Positions 1,444-10,626 of a stretch of DNA of 11,785 nt are shown in pieces. The translations under genes and the position numbers were made by a program. The notes beneath the pieces are model-generated. The model saw only the letters and a list, made by a program, of their open reading frames with translations. It ran no database searches and was not told the DNA's origin. The stretch's first letter is position 1; each line of letters starts with the position of its first letter. The stretch is from Conexibacter sp. (GTDB lineage Bacteria > Actinomycetota > Thermoleophilia > Solirubrobacterales > Solirubrobacteraceae), in assembly GCA_025964295.1 (NCBI GenBank), contig JAOPZD010000046.1, positions 1-11,785 of the forward strand. Reading direction: 5' to 3'.

Positions 1444-2481
1444 ATGGACACCCGACCCCTGGGACGCAGCGGCGTCTCGGTCAGCCCGCTCTGCCTGGGC
1501 GCGATGATGTTCGGCGCCTTCGGCAACCCCGACCACGACGACGCGGTCCGGATCATCCACCGCGCCCTCGACGCCGGGATCACCTTCATCGATACCGCCG
1601 ACGTGTACTCCGACGGCGAGTCGGAGGAGATCGTCGGTCAGGCGCTCGCCGGCGGACGGCGCGACGACGTCGTGCTGGCCACGAAGGTCGGCCTGCCGTT
1701 CGGCCAGGACCCCAACCACCGCGGCACGTCGCGGCGCTGGATCACCGAGGCGGTCGAGGGCTCGCTGCGGCGACTCCAGACCGACTGGATCGACCTCTAC
1801 CAAGTTCATCGCCTTGATCCGTCCGTCGACATGGACGAGACCCTGGGCATCCTGTCCGACCTCGTCCACGCGGGCAAGATCCGCGCCTTCGGCGCGTCGA
1901 CGGCCTCCGGCTCGGAGATCGTCGAGGCCCGGTGGACGGCCGAGCGCCGCGGCCGCGAGCGGTTTCGCACCGAGCAGCCCCCGTACTCCCTCCTGACGCG
2001 CGCCGTCGAGTACGACGTCCTGCCGACCTGCCTGCGCCACGGGATCGGCGTGTTGACCTACAGCCCGCTGGCCGGCGGCTGGCTGTCGGGCAAGTACCGC
2101 AAGGGCCAGGAGATCGCCGGGCCGGGGTCCGTCGCCCGGCAGCAGCGCTTCGGCGAGCGCCTGGATGGCGCCTCCCCCGCGAACGCCGCCAAGCTCGACG
2201 CCGCCGACGCCCTCGGCGCGCTCGCCGACGAGGCCGGGCTGACCCTCATCCAGATGGCGATCGCCTTCGTCACCCGCCACCCGGCGGTCACCTCCGCGAT
2301 CGTCGGCCCGCGCACGATGGAGCACCTCGAGTCCTACCTGGCCGCCGCCGACGTCGACCTGTCCGGCGACCTGCTCGACCGCATCGACGCGATCGTCCCG
2401 CCCGGGCACAGCGTCGACGTCGCCGACAACATGTGGAACACGAGCACGCCGGCGCTCGACGCCGCGTCGCGTCGCCGCTGA
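1444..2481 (+). CDS. Aldo/keto reductase
   Basis: 345 residues. The start is fixed by an AAGGAG ribosome site (1432-1437) six bases before the ATG. The catalytic tetrad is visible: D50 and Y55 in FIDTADVYSDGES, K81 in LATKVG, and H122 in YQVHRLDP. Other family landmarks are the N-terminal RPLGRSGVSVSPLCLGAM, the IRAFGAST strand, the TYSPLAGGWLSGKY segment and the NADPH-binding end SAIVGPRTMEHLES. It resembles the AKR class that includes YajO/YghZ-like and Tas-like reductases of about 330-350 residues. The expected reaction is NADPH-dependent reduction of aldehydes or ketones in the cytosol; the substrate cannot be told. It is divergent from tetR with two probable operators between, suggesting induction by a xenobiotic or reactive carbonyl. 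The peroxiredoxin-like gene on the other side fits an oxidative or electrophile stress module. Confidence 0.92.
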   Translation: MDTRPLGRSGVSVSPLCLGAMMFGAFGNPDHDDAVRIIHRALDAGITFIDTADVYSDGESEEIVGQALAGGRRDDVVLATKVGLPFGQDPNHRGTSRRWITEAVEGSLRRLQTDWIDLYQVHRLDPSVDMDETLGILSDLVHAGKIRAFGASTASGSEIVEARWTAERRGRERFRTEQPPYSLLTRAVEYDVLPTCLRHGIGVLTYSPLAGGWLSGKYRKGQEIAGPGSVARQQRFGERLDGASPANAAKLDAADALGALADEAGLTLIQMAIAFVTRHPAVTSAIVGPRTMEHLESYLAAADVDLSGDLLDRIDAIVPPGHSVDVADNMWNTSTPALDAASRRR

Positions 2482-2500
2482 GCAGGTCTTGCGCATGTGG

Positions 2501-2521
2501 TGATAGAATCGCAACTATTAT
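2501..2521 (+). promoter_or_regulatory. Candidate MarR operator and -10 element ahead of the exporter
   Basis: The 20-bp stretch TGATAGAATCGCAACTATTA is an imperfect inverted repeat: TGATAG at one end and CTATTA at the other match in 5 of 6 positions, around AATCGCAA. Its end overlaps TATTAT (2516-2521), a near-consensus -10 hexamer and among the few A/T-rich spots in the region. A start site near 2528 would give a leader of about 28 nt. No convincing -35 was found: TTGCGC at 2489-2494 is too far upstream. An inverted repeat covering the -10 ahead of an exporter whose operon ends in a MarR gene is the expected layout for MarR autorepression. That use is inferred. Confidence 0.45.
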
Positions 2522-2555
2522 GACATCGCAAGGATCGCAGCGCGAGGAGCCACCG

Positions 2556-3995
2556 ATGGCCGCCGGCTCCCAGCTCAGTCGCCGGCGGCGCATCGACGTC
2601 CTGCTGATCTGCTCGATGACCCTGTTCATGGTCGGGCTCGACATCACCGCCGTGAACGTCGCCCTGCCGTCGATCGGCGAGCAGATGGACGCCGGCCTCT
2701 CCTGGTTGCAGTGGACCGTCAGCGCCTACACGGTCGTCATGGCCAGCCTGTTGCTGTTCTCGGGCTCGATGGCCGACCGGCTGGGCCGCAGGCGCACCCT
2801 CGTCCTCGGCCTCGGCGTGTTCTCGACGGCATCGCTGCTGTGCAGCCTCGCGCCGACGGTCGAGCTGCTCGTCGTCTTCCGCGTCCTGCAGGGCGTCGGC
2901 GCCTCGATGCTCAATCCCGTCGCGATGTCGATCATCACCAACACCTTCACCGACCCGCGCGAGCGAGCCCAGACGGTCGGGGTCTGGGGAGCGGTCTTCG
3001 GGGCGTCGATGGCGCTGGGCCCCATCCTCGGCGGCGCGCTCGTCTCCACGGCCGGCTGGCGGTGGATCTTCCTGATGAACATCCCGCTCGGGCTGGCCGC
3101 CATCATGCTGACCCTGCGCTTCGTCCCGGAGTCCAGGGCCGCGAAGCCGCGCCGGTTCGATCCGGTCGGCCAGGTGCTGGTCATCGTCCTGCTGTCCTCG
3201 GTCACCTACGGGATCATCGAGGCGCCGGACGCCGGCTGGACCTCGCCGACGATTCTGGTGGCCCTCGGCGCCGCCGCCGTCGCGCTGCTGGGGCTGCTGC
3301 GCTACGAGCCGCGCCGTGACGAGCCGCTCGTCGAGCTGCGCTTCTTCGGCTCGATCCCGTTCTCGTCGTCGATCGCGCTCTCGGTGGCCGCCTTCGCCTC
3401 CTTCGGCGGCTTCCTCTTCCTCAACACGGTCTACCTGCAGGAGGCACGAGGCCTGTCCCCGGTCCAGGCGGGCGTCGCCATCGTGCCGATCGCCCTGATG
3501 ACGGTCGTCCTGTCGCCGATCTCGGGTCGCATGGTCGGCCGCGGCGGGCCGCGCAAGCCGCTCGTCATCGCCGGCATCGCCTTGTTGGTGTCCTGCTCGA
3601 TGCTCGTCGACATCGGGCCGGACACCCCGTTTGCCTGGCTCATCGCCGCCTACGCGCTCTTCGGCGTCGGCATCGGCTTCGTCAACGCGCCGATCACCAA
3701 CGCCGCCGTGTCCGGCATGCCCCGCGAGCAGGCCGGCGTCGCCGCGGCCATCGCCACCACGTCACGGCAGTTCGGCCAGGCCATCGGCGTGGCGATCGTC
3801 GGCGCGATCGTGGCCTCCGGCGCCGCGGGCTCCACCGCCGCCGGGCTCTCGTCGGCCACCCATCCCGCGTGGTGGACCCTGACGACCCTGGGCGCGGTCG
3901 TGCTCGTCCTCGGGCTGCTGGCGACGGGCAGCCGGGCCACCCGGTCGGCACGGCGCACGGCGGTCGAGCTCAATCCCGAGGCCCTCGCCGCTTAG
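2556..3995 (+). CDS. DHA2-family (EmrB/QacA-type) MFS drug:H+ antiporter
   Basis: 479 residues, very hydrophobic, consistent with about 14 membrane helices. TM1 carries the DHA2 motif D1 (LDITAVNVALPSI, 28-40) with D29 in the membrane. Motif A is GSMADRLGRRRT (70-81), motif B is VFRVLQGVGASMLNP (107-121) and motif C, the antiporter motif, is GASMALGPILGGAL (149-162). The length and motifs match 14-TM exporters that use the proton gradient to expel drugs, dyes or antibiotics from the inner membrane. The ATG at 2556 is preferred because GAGGAG (2544-2549) lies six bases upstream; an in-frame ATG at 2520 overlaps the candidate -10 and is less likely. A marR gene starts 11 bp after the stop, so the two are probably co-transcribed. 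The substrate is unknown. Confidence 0.93.
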   Translation: MAAGSQLSRRRRIDVLLICSMTLFMVGLDITAVNVALPSIGEQMDAGLSWLQWTVSAYTVVMASLLLFSGSMADRLGRRRTLVLGLGVFSTASLLCSLAPTVELLVVFRVLQGVGASMLNPVAMSIITNTFTDPRERAQTVGVWGAVFGASMALGPILGGALVSTAGWRWIFLMNIPLGLAAIMLTLRFVPESRAAKPRRFDPVGQVLVIVLLSSVTYGIIEAPDAGWTSPTILVALGAAAVALLGLLRYEPRRDEPLVELRFFGSIPFSSSIALSVAAFASFGGFLFLNTVYLQEARGLSPVQAGVAIVPIALMTVVLSPISGRMVGRGGPRKPLVIAGIALLVSCSMLVDIGPDTPFAWLIAAYALFGVGIGFVNAPITNAAVSGMPREQAGVAAAIATTSRQFGQAIGVAIVGAIVASGAAGSTAAGLSSATHPAWWTLTTLGAVVLVLGLLATGSRATRSARRTAVELNPEALAA

Positions 3996-4006
3996 GCTGG
4001 AGCGAC

Positions 4007-4426
4007 ATGACCGAGGACCGCAAGGACGACCTCTCCCGCGAGGTCTGGACGCTGATGTCCGATCTCGTCCTCGACCACCAGCGGCGCCGCCAGGTCTCCG
4101 AGGCCGTCGGGCTCAGCTTCTCGCGCGCGCGAGCGGTGCGACGCGTCGCCGAGGAGCCGCTGTCGATGGGCGAGCTGGCCGCGATGCTCGGGATCGACCG
4201 TCCCAACGCCACGGTGCTCGTCGACGACCTCGAGCGCCAGGGACTCGTCCGCCGCCGTCCTCATCCGACGGACCGGCGAGCCAAGCTGGTCGAGGCCACC
4301 CGCAAGGGCAAGACCATCGCCAAGCGCGCCAACGACATCCTCGGGACGCCACCGGCAGCCCTGAGCGCGCTTGACGCAGACGACCTCGAAGCCCTCCGAC
4401 GCGTGCTGGGCCGGGTCGCGCCGTAG
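4007..4426 (+). CDS. MarR-family transcriptional regulator
   Basis: 139 residues, the usual MarR size. The winged helix-turn-helix spans about 38-97: LSFSRARAVRRVAEEPLSMGELA, then the recognition helix region IDRPNATVLVDDLERQGLV (63-81), and the wing with the conserved D-x-R pattern, RRPHPTDRRAKLVEAT (83-98). Short helices at both ends (10-30 and 100-139) would form the dimer interface. It follows the exporter gene by 11 bp and most likely represses that operon, with an efflux substrate as effector (inference). GGAG at 3999-4002 serves as ribosome site. The sequence TAGGCT (3993-3998), which includes the exporter stop codon, also resembles an actinobacterial -10 eight bases before the ATG, so a separate near-leaderless transcript is possible. 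Confidence 0.92.
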   Translation: MTEDRKDDLSREVWTLMSDLVLDHQRRRQVSEAVGLSFSRARAVRRVAEEPLSMGELAAMLGIDRPNATVLVDDLERQGLVRRRPHPTDRRAKLVEATRKGKTIAKRANDILGTPPAALSALDADDLEALRRVLGRVAP

Positions 4427-5750: not shown

Positions 5751-6347
5751 GTGAGGGTCGCTGACCTTCTCCCAGACGACACGCCTGCGACGCACGCCGC
5801 GCGGGAGGTCGTTACGGAGTACAGCTCGGCCGCCCTGGTCAACCATTGCCAGCGCGCGTATCTGTGGTCCGCGGCCCTGGGCGAGTTCACCGCAGCCGCC
5901 TACGACCGCGAGCTGCTCTACGTCGCCTCGATGCTCCACGACCTCGGCCTCGTGCCCGCGTTCGACAACTACCGCTCGCCGTTCGAGGACGCCGGCGGCG
6001 ACGTCGCCTGGGTGTTCGCCGCCGGCGCCGACTGGCCGCTGGAGCGCCGGACCCGCGTCAAGGAGATCGTCGTCCGCCACATGTGGGACCAGGTCGATCC
6101 CTCGTTCGACACCGAGGGCCATCTTCTCTGCGAGGGCACCAAGCTCGACATCGCCGGCCGCAATCCCGACACCTGGCCCACCGGCTTCCGGGCCGAGGTC
6201 GTCGAGCGCTTCCCGCGGCTCGGCCTTCCCACCGAGTTCCTCGCGGCGTTCCAGGACCAGGCTCGCCGCAAGCCGGGCTGTGCCGCCGCGGCCGCCGTCG
6301 CAGCCGGCCTCGCCGACCGCATCGCCACGAACCCCCTCGACCGCTAG
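5751..6347 (+). CDS. HD-domain metal-dependent hydrolase, cyanamide hydratase-like
   Basis: 198 residues from the GTG at 5751. Metal ligands of the HD fold are clear: H32 in LVNHCQRAYLW, H63-D64 in LLYVASMLHDLGLVP, H110 in IVVRHMW, and D133 in GTKLDIAGRNP as a possible distal ligand. The NHxxRxY opening and LYVASMLHDLGL core resemble cyanamide hydratase-type HD proteins of about 200 residues. Family members hydrate or hydrolyse small molecules or nucleotides, so the substrate is left open. Start choice is uncertain: homologous sequence begins near VRVADLLPDD, but no strong ribosome site precedes 5751, and an ATG at 5673 is also in frame. The overlap with a 19-codon upstream frame suggests translational coupling. 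It converges on the cupin gene, 30 bp apart. Confidence 0.82.
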   Translation: MRVADLLPDDTPATHAAREVVTEYSSAALVNHCQRAYLWSAALGEFTAAAYDRELLYVASMLHDLGLVPAFDNYRSPFEDAGGDVAWVFAAGADWPLERRTRVKEIVVRHMWDQVDPSFDTEGHLLCEGTKLDIAGRNPDTWPTGFRAEVVERFPRLGLPTEFLAAFQDQARRKPGCAAAAAVAAGLADRIATNPLDR

Positions 6348-6377: not shown

Positions 6378-6779
6378 CTAGTCACCCCACCAGTCGCGCT
6401 CGCCCTCGACGTCTTCGCGCGGAGCCTCGCCGAGGTTGGGCGCGCCGATGACGAGGATCTCGAGGCCCTCCGGCCCGGCCTCGTAGCCGCGCCACGTGCC
6501 GGGCGCGACGCGCACCGCGTCCCACTCCTTGAGCTCGACGATCTCGTCGTCGAGCTTCATCCGCCCGCTCCCGCGCAGCACCACGGACACCTCCTCCTGG
6601 CGCTTGTGCGTGTGGCCGTACGGAAAGCGGGAGCCGGGCGGGACGCGCTGGTAGCTCAGGCCCGACTCCTCGAGCTCGAGCGCCTGGGTCGCCAAGCGGA
6701 ACTCCAGTCCCGGCGCGCCCTCGAACTTGGACCCGACGTCCTCCAGATCCTCCTTGAGGTTCCTCTGCGTGAACGGCAC
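6378..6779 (-). CDS. Single-domain cupin protein
   Basis: 133 residues with one cupin_2 beta-barrel. Motif 1 is PYGHTHKRQEEVSVVLRGSG (53-72), giving metal ligands H56, H58 and E62 or E63. Motif 2 would be VRVAPGTWRGYEAGPEG (89-105); the histidine normally found there is replaced, apparently by R97. A catalytic metal site would be incomplete, so a binding or sensing role is as likely as enzymatic activity. The C-terminus is acidic and ends GERDWWGD. The start codon is GTG (complement of 6777-6779). On the complement, TAGGAT (6786-6791) lies exactly six bases before it, which fits a -10 of a leaderless transcript. The acetyltransferase gene is 65 bp upstream on the same strand; a functional link is not evident. 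Confidence 0.87.
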   Translation of the reverse strand: MPFTQRNLKEDLEDVGSKFEGAPGLEFRLATQALELEESGLSYQRVPPGSRFPYGHTHKRQEEVSVVLRGSGRMKLDDEIVELKEWDAVRVAPGTWRGYEAGPEGLEILVIGAPNLGEAPREDVEGERDWWGD

Positions 6780-7604: not shown

Positions 7605-7659
7605 AGGGTTTGTGCCGCTGCACCACGCGCCCCCCTGCCACACCAGAGTATCCCGGCCA

Positions 7660-7680
7660 GGGGGCTTGTTTCAAGCCCCC
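7660..7680. promoter_or_regulatory. Rifamycin-associated element (RAE) upstream of rph
   Basis: A perfect inverted repeat with 9-bp arms, GGGGGCTTG (7660-7668) and CAAGCCCCC (7672-7680), separated by TTT. The inner 19 bp (7661-7679) match the rifamycin-associated element as I recall it, GGGGCTTGCRGCAAGCCCC, at every position except the central three. RAEs precede rifamycin-inducible resistance genes of actinobacteria, including rph, glycosyltransferase, monooxygenase and helR genes. Here it lies 48 bp before the phosphotransferase start. A -10-like CATACT (7691-7696) follows; with 17-bp spacing its -35 (GTTTCA, 7668-7673) would fall in the centre of the repeat. The palindrome is seen directly; its identity rests on recalled consensus plus gene context. 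Confidence 0.8.
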
Positions 7681-7690
7681 GGGTGTCCCC

Positions 7691-7728: not shown

Positions 7729-10383
7729 ATGAGTACCGAGCAGCATGCGGCGGGGACCGCCGGGGGCGATCCAAGAGGGGCGTCCCAGCCCAACTGCTAC
7801 GTGTTGGGTTTCGGAGACATCGACCAGACGCAGGTCGCGCTCGTCGGCGGCAAGGGCGCGCACCTCGGGGAGCTGTCGCGCATCGAAGGCATCCGCGTGC
7901 CGCCTGGCTTCTGCGTGACGACGGACGCCTTCCGGCGGATCGTGGGGCAAGCGCCGTCGATCGACGGTCTGCTGGATCGACTGTCGCGCCTGAGCGCGGA
8001 TGACCGGGAGGCGATCCGCGCGCTCAGCGCCGAGATCCGCCGGACCGTCGAAGGGATCGCCATCCCCGACGACGTGGCGGCGGCGATCACCCTCGCGCTC
8101 ACCCGCCTCGGCGAGCACGCCGCGTACGCCGTCCGATCGAGCGCGACGGCAGAGGACCTGCCGGCGGCCTCCTTCGCCGGCCAGCAGGACACGTACCTCA
8201 ACATCGTGGGGCCGGCCGCGATCCTCGAGCACCTCAGCCGGTGCTGGGCCTCGCTGTTCACCGAGCGGGCGGTGACCTACCGCCTGCGCAACGGCTTCGA
8301 CCATCGCACGGTCCACATGGCCGTGGTCGTCCAGCAGATGGTCTTCCCGCAGGCGGCCGGCATCCTGTTCACGGCCGACCCCGTCACGTCCAACCGCAAG
8401 GTCGCCTCCGTCGAGGCAAGCTTCGGCCTCGGCGAGGCCCTCGTCTCAGGCCTGGTCAACGCAGACCGCTACAAGGTGCGCGACGGCGAGGTCGTCGCCA
8501 AGGCGGTCGGCACCAAGCGGCTGGCCATCCACGCCTCACCGACGGGCGGGACGCAGGAGCAGGCGATCGACCCGGCGCAGCAGGAGCAGCCGGCGCTGAC
8601 CGATGCGCAGGTCGTGCGGCTCGCGCAGCTGGGCCGGCGGATCGAGGCGCACTTCGGCCGCCCCCAGGACATCGAGTGGTGCCTGGCCGGCGACGGCTTC
8701 GAGATCGTCCAGAGCCGGCCGATCACCACGCTGTTCCCGATCCCCGTGGCCGACGACGACGAGAACCACGTCTACGTCTCCGTCGGCCATAAGCAGATGA
8801 TGAACGACCCCATGTAGCCCCTCGGGCTCTCCCTCTGGCAGCTGTCGGCCCTCCCGCGGATGTACGACGCCGGCGGGAGGCTGTTCGTCGACGTCCTCCA
8901 GCGCCTGGCCTCGCCGGCGACCCGCGAAGCCATCGTCGAGGCCTTGGGGACGTCCGATCCGCTGATCGGCGACGCGCTGCAGACCATCCTCGACCGCGGC
9001 GACTTCATCCCGTCGCTCCCCGACGAGGGTCCCGCGAGCGCGCCGCCTCCCGACGCGCCGGCCCCGATCGAGACCGATCCGGCCATCGTCACCGAGCTGA
9101 TCGAGCGCGGCCGGGCTTCCAACGCCGCCCTGGGACGCAGCATCCGGTCGAGGTCCGGGTCGGCGCTGCTCGACGTCATCCTGGCGGACATCCAGGAGCT
9201 GAAGCGGATCCTCTTCGATCCGCGAAGCCGTCAGGTGTACATGGGAGCGATGGACGCCTCGGGGTGGCTCAACGAGCGCCTGCAGGAGTGGCTGGGCGAG
9301 AAGCACGCGGCCGACACGCTCACGCAGTCGGTCCCCCACAACGTCACGTCGGAGATGGGGCTGGCGCTCCTGGACGTCGCGGACGTGATCCGCCCGCATC
9401 CGGAGGTGGTGGCCTTTCTGCGGGACGCCGAGGACGAGCGGTTCCTGGACGAGCTGACCCAGCTTGCCGGCGGGCCGCAGGCGCGGGAGGCCATCGGGGC
9501 CTTCCTCGACGAGTACGGCATGCGCTGCGTCGGCGAGATCGACATCACGAGGCCCCGCTGGAGCGAACGCCCCACCACGCTCCTGCCCCTGATCCTCGGC
9601 AACATCGACACCTTCGAGCCGGGCGCCGGCGAGCGGCGCTTCGAGCAAGGGCGCCAGGAGGCGCTGGAGAAGGAGCAGGAGCTGCTGGAACGCCTGCGGG
9701 CGCTGCCGGACGGCGAGCGGAAGGCCGACGAGACCAAGCGGATGATCGATCGGGTCCGGAACTTCAGCGGACACCGGGAATATCCGAAGTACTTCATGGT
9801 CAGCCGCTACTTCATCTACAAGCAGGCCCTGCTGGAAGAGGCCGAGCGCCTCGTCCGGGCCGGCGTGCTGCGTGAGCAGGAGGACATCTTCTTCCTCACC
9901 TTCCAGGAGCTCCACGACGTCGTGCACACCAGCGACGTCGATGACCAGCTCATCGCAGAGCGCAAGCTCGCCTTCAGGTCCTACGGAGCGCTCACACCGC
10001 CCCGGGTGCTCACGTCCGATGGCGAGGCCATCGCCGGGGCCTACCGACGCGACGACGCGCCGGCCGGGGCGCTGATCGGCCTCCCGGTCTCCAGCGGGAC
10101 CATCGAGGGCCGGGCCCGCGTCATCCTGGACATGGCCGAGGCCGAGCTCGAGCCGGGCGACATCCTGGTCACGGCGTACACGGACCCCAGCTGGTCGCTG
10201 CTGTTCGTCGCGATCGACGGTCTGGTGACGGAGGTCGGTGGCCTGATGACCCACGGCGCGGTGATCGCACGCGAGTACGGCCTGCCGGCGGTCGTGGGCG
10301 TGGAGCGGGCCACCGAGCTGATCCGGGACGGGCAGCGCATCCGCGTGCACGGGACGGACGGCTACGTCGAGCTGCTGGACTGA
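7729..10383 (+). pseudogene. rph: Rifampin phosphotransferase, reading frame interrupted by an in-frame amber codon
   Basis: One frame of 884 codons, broken only by TAG at codon 363 (8815-8817). Before it, residues 1-335 form the PPDK-type ATP-grasp domain: QVALVGGKGAHLGELSRIEG, then YAVRSSATAEDLPAASFAGQQ, GILFTADPVTSN and DIEWCLAGDGFEIVQSRPI. After it come the rifamycin-binding domain and the swivelling phospho-histidine domain, with TEVGGLMTHGAVIAREYG and catalytic H842, ending GTDGYVELLD. Family enzymes (about 865 residues) transfer the beta-phosphate of ATP through this histidine to the C21 hydroxyl of rifamycins, inactivating them. PEP synthase is the main alternative, but the THGAVIAREYG form and RAE context favour rph. 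The stop falls just past the ATP-grasp domain, so the 362-residue product lacks both drug site and catalytic histidine. ATG 8860 is in frame downstream but has no ribosome site. Sequence on both sides of the stop is well conserved, indicating a recent mutation, an error or read-through. Confidence 0.85.
8815..8817 (+). other. rph: In-frame TAG at codon 363 of rph
   Basis: The codons read ATG-AAC-GAC-CCC-ATG-TAG-CCC-CTC-GGG-CTC. In rifampin phosphotransferases I recall, this motif reads M-x-D-P-M-K-P-L-G-L, so TAG replaces a lysine codon; AAG to TAG is a single base change. The frame is uninterrupted on both sides, with no frameshift. TAG also ends the exporter, marR, HD, cupin and XRE genes in this window, so it works as a normal stop in this genome. 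No pairing element or other recoding signal is obvious around it. Confidence 0.9.
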
Positions 10384-10395
10384 CGGCCCGGCCCC

Positions 10396-10626
10396 CTAGC
10401 CCTCCGACGAGCGCACGCCGAGCAGCAGCTCGGACGGCGTCGTGCGCAGCGCGCGGGCCAGCCGCGTGACCATCCGGATCGACGGGTCGACGCGCCCGCG
10501 CTCGATGCGGCTGTACTGGCTCTGGTCCATCATCGCGGCCGCCGCGACGGCCTCCTGGGTCAACCCGAGCGCGCGCCGGCGGCGCACGAGGTTGGCGGTG
10601 AAGGCGTCGAGCGGGTCATCGAACAT
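10396..10626 (-). CDS. XRE/Cro-type helix-turn-helix regulator
   Basis: 76 residues, essentially one HTH_3 domain (about 11-66): LVRRRRALGLTQEAVAAAAMM, then the recognition helix and following turn DQSQYSRIERGRVDPSIRMV, then LARALRTTPSELL. This is the standard lambda-Cro-like pattern; no sensor or catalytic domain follows. It converges on rph with a 12-bp gap and is divergent from the sigma-factor gene 85 bp away, so control of that promoter or of itself is plausible (inference). The ATG at 10626 lacks a strong ribosome site, and an in-frame GTG at 10668 could add 14 residues; the shorter form begins close to the domain and is preferred. Confidence 0.87.
   Translation of the reverse strand: MFDDPLDAFTANLVRRRRALGLTQEAVAAAAMMDQSQYSRIERGRVDPSIRMVTRLARALRTTPSELLLGVRSSEG

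What the first reader, a model, noticed from the sequence alone, without database searches (positions are those of the whole stretch)
8815..8817. Rifampin phosphotransferase split by a single amber codon between its ATP-grasp and drug-binding parts
Seen: one open frame of 884 codons from 7729 to 10383 with a single TAG at codon 363; both sides are fully conserved in character and no frameshift exists. Known: rph needs the ATP-grasp domain, the rifamycin-binding domain and the swivelling histidine on one chain. I recall lysine at this position in relatives, so AAG to TAG is one base. Inference: a very recent loss of rifamycin resistance, a sequencing or assembly error, natural suppression, or a split enzyme if the second half is made separately. 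The intact RAE and downstream half argue against an old pseudogene.
Basis: partly seen in the sequence, partly recalled or inferred. Interest (0 to 1): 0.7.

Follow-up and report, generated by a model that had tools for sequence, protein, structure and literature searches.

The report
Rifamycin-inactivating gene with one stop
A gene for an enzyme that inactivates rifamycin antibiotics is complete except for one stop codon inside its drug-binding domain, which is most likely a very recent loss of the gene or an error in a metagenome contig rather than a new kind of split enzyme.

Summary
In detail: one frame, 7729-10383, with a single TAG at codon 363 (8815-8817) and no frameshift. The pieces align to Listeria RPH 4-343 and 345-867. 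The stop is therefore not between the ATP-grasp (1-314) and rifampin-binding (327-754) domains but about 17 residues inside the latter, within arm 1. Relatives mostly carry Lys there (107 Lys, 5 Arg of 120 hits). No rph over the family cut-off shows an internal stop in two overlapping unnamed-genome searches (22 of 232 and 18 of 399 genomes). TAG is an ordinary stop in this contig: 5 of 11 other genes end with it, and the one checked does so at its family's usual C-terminus (86 of 120 homologues). The C piece's first ATG has no Shine-Dalgarno. Reassignment, efficient suppression and a working split enzyme are disfavoured. Best reading: a young single-lesion loss of function, with contig error close behind; no reads or genome are held to separate them. 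Two residues seen in none of 213 relatives lie just upstream of the stop, unexplained.

The parts
7657..7683 (.). RAE-like palindrome upstream of rph (12-nt arms, 92% complementary, 3-nt loop)
   Evidence: the repeat finder; the same or a relaxed core is within 350 nt upstream of the rph match in 22 of 44 loci (L002 and L029 are the same genome and both count; three loci with too little upstream DNA were left out); RAE described as a 19-bp palindrome in passages of PMC10719064 and PMC12802891
7729..8814 (+). N piece, 362 codons: complete ATP-grasp domain plus the first ~17 residues of the rifampin-binding domain
   Evidence: PPDK_N E 7.9e-94; NF041857 positions 2-341; RPH-Lm 4-343; start has a Shine-Dalgarno-like stretch, -6.6 kcal/mol
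8815..8817 (+). in-frame TAG, codon 363, equivalent to RPH-Lm residue 344
   Evidence: relatives have Lys, less often Arg
8818..10383 (+). C piece, 521 codons plus TGA: rest of the rifampin-binding domain and the swivel phosphohistidine domain
   Evidence: NF041857 positions 343-864; RPH-Lm 345-867; R666, E667, K670 and H825 equivalents kept
8860..10383 (+). first possible downstream ORF (ATG, 507 aa); no Shine-Dalgarno
   Evidence: anti-SD energy -1.7 against a random median of -3.5 kcal/mol
8791..8793 (+). codon 355, Lys where RPH-Lm has Gln336, a direct rifampin hydrogen-bond residue
   Evidence: 0 of 213 relatives have Lys; role of Gln336 from PMC4844700 section 6
8803..8805 (+). codon 359, Asn where 212 of 213 relatives have Thr
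3993..3995 (+). TAG as the stop of the MFS efflux gene
4424..4426 (+). TAG as the stop of the MarR gene
6345..6347 (+). TAG as the stop of the HD-domain gene
6378..6380 (-). TAG as the stop of the cupin gene, at the same end residue as 86 of 120 homologues
10396..10398 (-). TAG as the stop of the XRE-type regulator gene

Best explanation
An ordinary rph of a probably actinobacterial host has taken a single nonsense lesion very recently. Inferred mechanism: rifamycin still induces the gene through the RAE-like element; ribosomes then terminate at codon 363 and release an ATP-grasp domain with a short stub of the drug-binding domain. The phosphohistidine swivel domain and most of the drug pocket are not made, so rifamycin is not phosphorylated by this gene. 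The lesion is young, because the downstream 521 codons have no second stop or frameshift and keep the catalytic residues. Shown: the TAG, the single-lesion anatomy, past constraint on both pieces, TAG as a common stop in the contig, and no Shine-Dalgarno at the C piece's first ATG. Inferred: that the TAG is really in the cell's DNA, that it terminates translation efficiently, and that the element still responds to rifamycin.
For: Single TAG with exactly one residue missing between the alignments. Past constraint on both pieces (10 relatives). Catalytic residues kept. TAG ends 5 of 11 other genes of the contig, and the one compared with its family ends at the usual C-terminus. The stop lies within arm 1 of the rifampin-binding domain. 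Residues seen in no listed relative accompany it: Lys at the Gln336 place, Asn359, His next to the catalytic Arg666, Val483. The C piece has 11 such residues against a mean of 6.7 in relatives of similar distance, of which 3 of 28 have as many. Most bacterial pseudogenes are defined by a single mutation (PMC11017572 passage). One relative genome, G304, carries an rph without its 5' part in the 4 kb read, so loss does occur, unless that contig is chimeric.
Against: One contig with no reads, sister strain or genome, so an assembly error explains the TAG equally simply. The signs of decay are weak: at columns conserved in at least 98% the window departs once in the N piece (126 of 213 relatives depart as often) and three times in the C piece (29 of 119), and the N piece has an ordinary number of never-seen residues (3; mean 3.2 in relatives of similar distance). 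dN/dS is higher in the C than in the N piece for only 6 of 10 relatives. The intact RAE and frame are also what an intact gene would show. The nearest listed relatives are 87% identical over the C piece and 90% over 92% of the N piece, so the age of the lesion cannot be dated.
Confidence: 0.52

Rival explanations
1. Base error in a low-coverage metagenome contig, or a strain-mixture consensus; the organism's rph is intact.
For: The window appears to be one whole 11,785-base contig (its own proteins list longest_contig 11785). No in-frame stop among the rph genes over cut-off in 22 of 232 and 18 of 399 genomes (overlapping sets), nor within the gene in 26 loci checked over 330 codons before and 515 after the site. 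[quoted passage not shown] Two residues seen in none of 213 relatives lie within 8 codons upstream of the stop, as a local patch of bad consensus would give. An inverted repeat ends at 8789 just before them.
Against: The other unusual residues are spread along the C piece, which a local error does not explain. No other damaged gene was noticed, but this rests on open frames and domain matches; whole-length comparison was made only for the cupin. No reads were seen.
Confidence: 0.36
2. The TAG is read through at a useful level (suppressor tRNA or leaky context) and full-length enzyme is made.
For: The downstream frame is preserved. In-frame stops with signs of selection are reported as widespread in prokaryotes (PMC7918605, start of abstract and passages).
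Against: 5 of 11 other genes in the contig end in TAG; the MarR and HD proteins would gain at least 29 residues each. The cupin ends at its TAG like 86 of 120 homologues. No relative was seen with a stop here. The same paper judges many such events short-lived. No tRNA gene in the window; the genome is not held.
Confidence: 0.07
3. A two-component enzyme: N piece and C piece are made separately and work together, as in HpeHI.
For: HpeHI is a two-polypeptide homologue of RPH (PMC12167813). The N piece (362 residues) is close in size to HpeI (40.6 kDa). The ATG at 8860 opens a 507-aa ORF. An in-frame TTG at 8944 has an SD-like stretch (-5.9 kcal/mol), and one gene start of the contig, the TetR gene's, has no SD either (+0.4).
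Against: By RPH domain limits the break lies inside the rifampin-binding domain and separates Gln336/Gln337 from the rest of the site. HpeH is 71.1 kDa, much larger than the 507-521 residues here. No SD at 8860. A piece from 8860 would also lose 14 residues, 7 of them at least 95% conserved. None of the other 119 of the 120 listed N-piece hits stops at this point; one ends three residues short of it on a 2,929-base contig.
Confidence: 0.04

Closest known systems
Rifampin phosphotransferase (RPH/Rph; NCBIfam NF041857; RPH-Lm structures 5FBS, 5FBT, 5HV1)
   Same: Domain order, catalytic residues K22, R117, T136, R666, E667, K670, H825, RAE-like element upstream
   Different: Frame interrupted by TAG at the residue-344 equivalent; Lys at the Gln336 position; neither piece alone reaches the family cut-off of 999 bits (617 and 918)
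HpeHI / CreHI / PpsAB two-component dikinases
   Same: ATP-grasp and swivel parts homologous; show that the reaction can run on two chains (PMC12167813)
   Different: Separate genes, with a substrate-binding/swivel component (HpeH, 71.1 kDa) larger than the C piece; here one frame is broken inside the drug-binding domain
Single-lesion bacterial pseudogenes and spurious pseudogenes of assemblies (PMC11017572)
   Same: One internal stop in an otherwise constrained gene
   Different: Nothing that sets it apart, except two residues seen in none of 213 relatives close to the stop

Membership tests
Rifampin phosphotransferase (NF041857) | Sequence over the curated cut-off of 999 bits | tested here: inconclusive
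   Pieces searched apart score 617 and 918 bits over contiguous model positions 2-341 and 343-864; each alone is below the cut-off, and they were not joined
Rifampin phosphotransferase (NF041857) | ATP-grasp residues K22, R117, T136 | tested here: met
   K42, R136, T155 in the N piece
Rifampin phosphotransferase (NF041857) | R666/E667/K670 and phosphohistidine H825 | tested here: met
   codons 683, 684, 687 and 842
Rifampin phosphotransferase (NF041857) | Gln336/Gln337 of the drug site | tested here: inconclusive
   Gln337 kept; Gln336 is Lys, seen in 0 of 213 relatives. The position is Gln in 91% of them, and some relatives have Asn, Gly or Ala
Rifampin phosphotransferase (NF041857) | ATP-grasp, drug-binding and swivel domains on one continuous chain | tested here: not met
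   TAG at codon 363
Rifampin phosphotransferase (NF041857) | Phosphorylates rifamycins and gives resistance | not testable with these tools
   needs an assay
Two-component dikinase (HpeHI type) | Separate genes with the break between the ATP-grasp and substrate-binding domains | tested here: not met
   Break at the RPH-Lm 344 equivalent, inside the domain 327-754; no start signal at the second piece's first ATG. The N piece's size is nevertheless close to HpeI's
Amber reassignment or suppression | TAG not used as a general stop | tested here: not met
   5 of 11 other genes of the contig end in TAG; cupin C-terminus
Amber reassignment or suppression | tRNA that reads UAG | not testable with these tools
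   no genome held; none in the window

The most novel reading that the evidence does not exclude
A rifamycin-inducible rph whose drug-binding domain is gated by a leaky amber codon: a short ATP-grasp product is made by default and a little full-length enzyme by readthrough, a cheap low-dose resistance setting tuned by translation fidelity, with the altered residues at codons 355 and 359 accommodating whatever residue is inserted at 363.
Probability: 0.03. Interest if true: 0.6.

Novelty: new member of a known kind. Interest (0 to 1): 0.15.

Why it matters
It shows how a single stop in an environmental resistance gene should be read: surveys that count rph by homology would count this contig as carrying a working gene. 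It would matter more only if readthrough were shown. As it stands it is a routine single-lesion gene or a contig error, and the useful result is the corrected position of the break, inside the drug-binding domain.

Tried and rejected
Codon reassignment: rejected, because TAG is a common stop in the contig. Split enzyme: disfavoured; on re-checking, HpeI's size (40.6 kDa) turned out close to the N piece's, and I raised this rival from 0.03 to 0.04. Chimeric join at the stop: GC3 is 0.934 and 0.937 on the two sides, the same loci match both pieces, and the repeat search round the site gave one direct pair and one inverted pair, with no copy lying on the stop; not pursued further. Recurrent break at this codon: of the 120 listed C-piece hits, P0004, P0037, P0038, P0081 and P0120 begin within seven residues of the site, and P0079, P0094 and P0098 begin where the window's own ORF does. 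Several lie on short contigs; P0037 is on a 172-kb contig, no such match showed in the order and class searches, and it was not sought otherwise, so a break there is not excluded. G124 turned out to be a gene cut by two contig ends. One helix face for the changes at codons 355, 359 and 363: not supported, because the model of an intact relative has no helix over these residues, though confidence there is low (block mean pLDDT 60). CAT at codon 354 as part of a mutation patch: rejected, because it is the commonest codon there in relatives, 26 of 45. The first AlphaFold model was too poor to use (mean pLDDT 49.7).

Rows left out. C-piece search, 8 of 120 hits not counted at the site: own protein; three that start downstream; four that the motif search missed and that were not looked at singly. 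N-piece search, 5 of 120: own; one that ends before the site; three missed by the motif search. Only the best 120 of about 8,000 scored hits were listed in either search. Codon table: 45 of loci L001-L049; L015, L028, L029 and L030 left out. dN/dS: 10 of the loci, my choice. Gene ends are my own calls; the gene running off the window's end was not counted.

The clustering figure p = 0.004 (3 of 14 never-seen residues within 10 codons of the stop) was computed after seeing the pattern and is a lead only.

Full report
The sequence. The frame from ATG 7729 to TGA 10381-10383 contains one stop, TAG at 8815-8817, codon 363 of 884. Searched apart, the N piece matches NF041857 positions 2-341 (617 bits) and the C piece positions 343-864 (918 bits). 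Against Listeria RPH they match residues 4-343 and 345-867. So exactly one residue is missing between them and there is no frameshift. The fold of an unbroken natural relative, P0100 (named Conexibacter stalactiti; mean pLDDT 84.3), matches the RPH-Lm crystal structures best (5hv1, E 1.4e-82); HpeI is the tenth match.

Where the stop falls. PMC4844700 (passages and one section seen) gives ATP-grasp 1-314, rifampin-binding domain 327-754 and swivel 767-865, with arm 1 made of 314-338, 357-413 and 738-753. The TAG corresponds to residue 344. It is therefore inside the rifampin-binding domain, between two parts of arm 1, and not between ATP-grasp and drug-binding domains as the finding's title says. 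The N piece carries the positions of Gln336 and Gln337; in that paper Gln336 makes one of only two hydrogen bonds to rifampin and Gln337 holds a phosphate oxygen of the product. The C piece carries Arg666, Glu667, Lys670 and His825. In the model of P0100 the site is residue 340, the last loop residue between strand 325-328 (followed by a three-residue helical turn) and helix 341-350; local confidence is low.

Conservation. Among the 120 listed C-piece hits the residue is Lys in 107 and Arg in 5, with 8 not counted. Among the 120 listed N-piece hits it is Lys in 114 and Arg in 1, with 5 not counted. Among 45 loci read as DNA it is Lys in 39, Arg in 5 and Thr in 1. In 26 loci scanned over 330 codons before and 515 after the site there is no stop inside the gene; one stop counted in L026, and one met in L017, lie before the conserved start of the protein. 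Intact copies are thus the rule. One genome (G304) has an rph lacking its 5' part in the 4 kb read, by rearrangement or contig chimera.

Constraint and age. dN/dS against 10 chosen relatives is 0.25-0.50 for the N piece and 0.32-0.50 for the C piece, higher in the C piece for 6 of 10. The C piece has no further stop or frameshift. At columns conserved in at least 98% of relatives the window departs once in the N piece (Thr to Asn, codon 359) and three times in the C piece (codons 483, 678, 682, the last next to the catalytic Arg); 126 of 213 and 29 of 119 relatives depart as often. Never-seen residues number 3 in the N piece (mean 3.2 in 53 relatives of similar distance) and 11 in the C piece (mean 6.7 in 28; 3 of 28 have as many). 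So signs of decay are slight at most. Three of these 14 residues (codons 355, 359, 373) lie within 10 codons of the stop; a post hoc binomial estimate is 0.004. Codon 355 is Lys where RPH-Lm has Gln336; 0 of 213 relatives have Lys there, although the position is only 91% Gln. This cluster fits local relaxed selection, a local patch of poor consensus after the inverted repeat 8747-8789, or chance. I cannot separate these.

Is TAG a stop in this organism? Of 11 other complete genes of the contig, by my own gene calls, 5 end in TAG, 6 in TGA and none in TAA. The cupin gene ends at its TAG at the same residue as 86 of 120 homologues; 14 of 120 run on by 10 or more residues. Reading TAG through would add at least 29 residues to the MarR and HD proteins. 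There is no tRNA in the window and no genome is held, so an amber tRNA cannot be excluded directly. PMC7918605 (start of abstract and passages) argues that readthrough of internal stops is frequent in prokaryotes but that many such cases are short-lived.

Can the C piece be made separately? The first ATG is 42 nt after the stop at 8860 and has no Shine-Dalgarno (-1.7 kcal/mol, weaker than the random median of -3.5; the rph start has -6.6). Against this, one of the other starts tested, that of the TetR gene, has none either (+0.4), and an in-frame TTG at 8944 has -5.9. A product from 8860 would miss 14 residues beyond the Gln336/337 segment already lost. [quoted passage not shown] The N piece is close to HpeI in size, but the C piece is much smaller than HpeH, and by RPH domain limits the break here is inside the drug-binding domain.

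Upstream and host. A palindrome at 7657-7683 has the same or a relaxed core as elements upstream of rph in 22 of 44 loci (L002 and L029 are one genome). It resembles the RAE, a 19-bp palindrome of rifamycin-response genes in Actinobacteria (passages in PMC10719064 and PMC12802891). The host is uncertain. Named hits for rph include Solirubrobacterales but also Acidimicrobiales, Microbacterium, Chloroflexi and others, and the best named genome hits include Myxococcus, Conexibacter and Saccharothrix. Named cupin hits are Thermoleophilaceae and Solirubrobacterales. No tree was made.

Verdict. The window appears to be one whole contig. PMC11017572 (passages) states that most pseudogenes have a single mutation and that low coverage and low-quality reads create spurious internal stops. 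Both readings fit. I put a real, young loss of function slightly ahead (0.52) of contig error (0.36), because unusual residues are also spread through the C piece and no other damaged gene was noticed (frames and domain matches only). Suppression (0.07) and a split enzyme (0.04) are unlikely. No title listed in the two paper searches that bear on it describes an rph broken by a stop codon (15 of 28 papers listed, 10 of 194); I did not search further.

Noticed in passing
   Followed up: partly
window 8791-8805: Two residues seen in none of 213 relatives (codons 355 and 359) lie just upstream of the TAG; the first is at the rifampin-contacting Gln336 position.
   Followed up: partly
window 8747-8789: A 15-nt inverted repeat (87% complementary, 13-nt loop) ends just before the patch of unusual residues.
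   Followed up: no
window 2478-4426: DHA2-type MFS efflux gene (TIGR00711, over its cut-off) directly followed by a MarR-type regulator: a likely drug-efflux operon in the same contig as rph.
   Followed up: no
   Followed up: no
P0037 (522 aa, 172-kb contig): A database rph C-part that begins at the residue before this same site on a long contig; its DNA was not obtained, so a second break near this place is possible.
   Followed up: no
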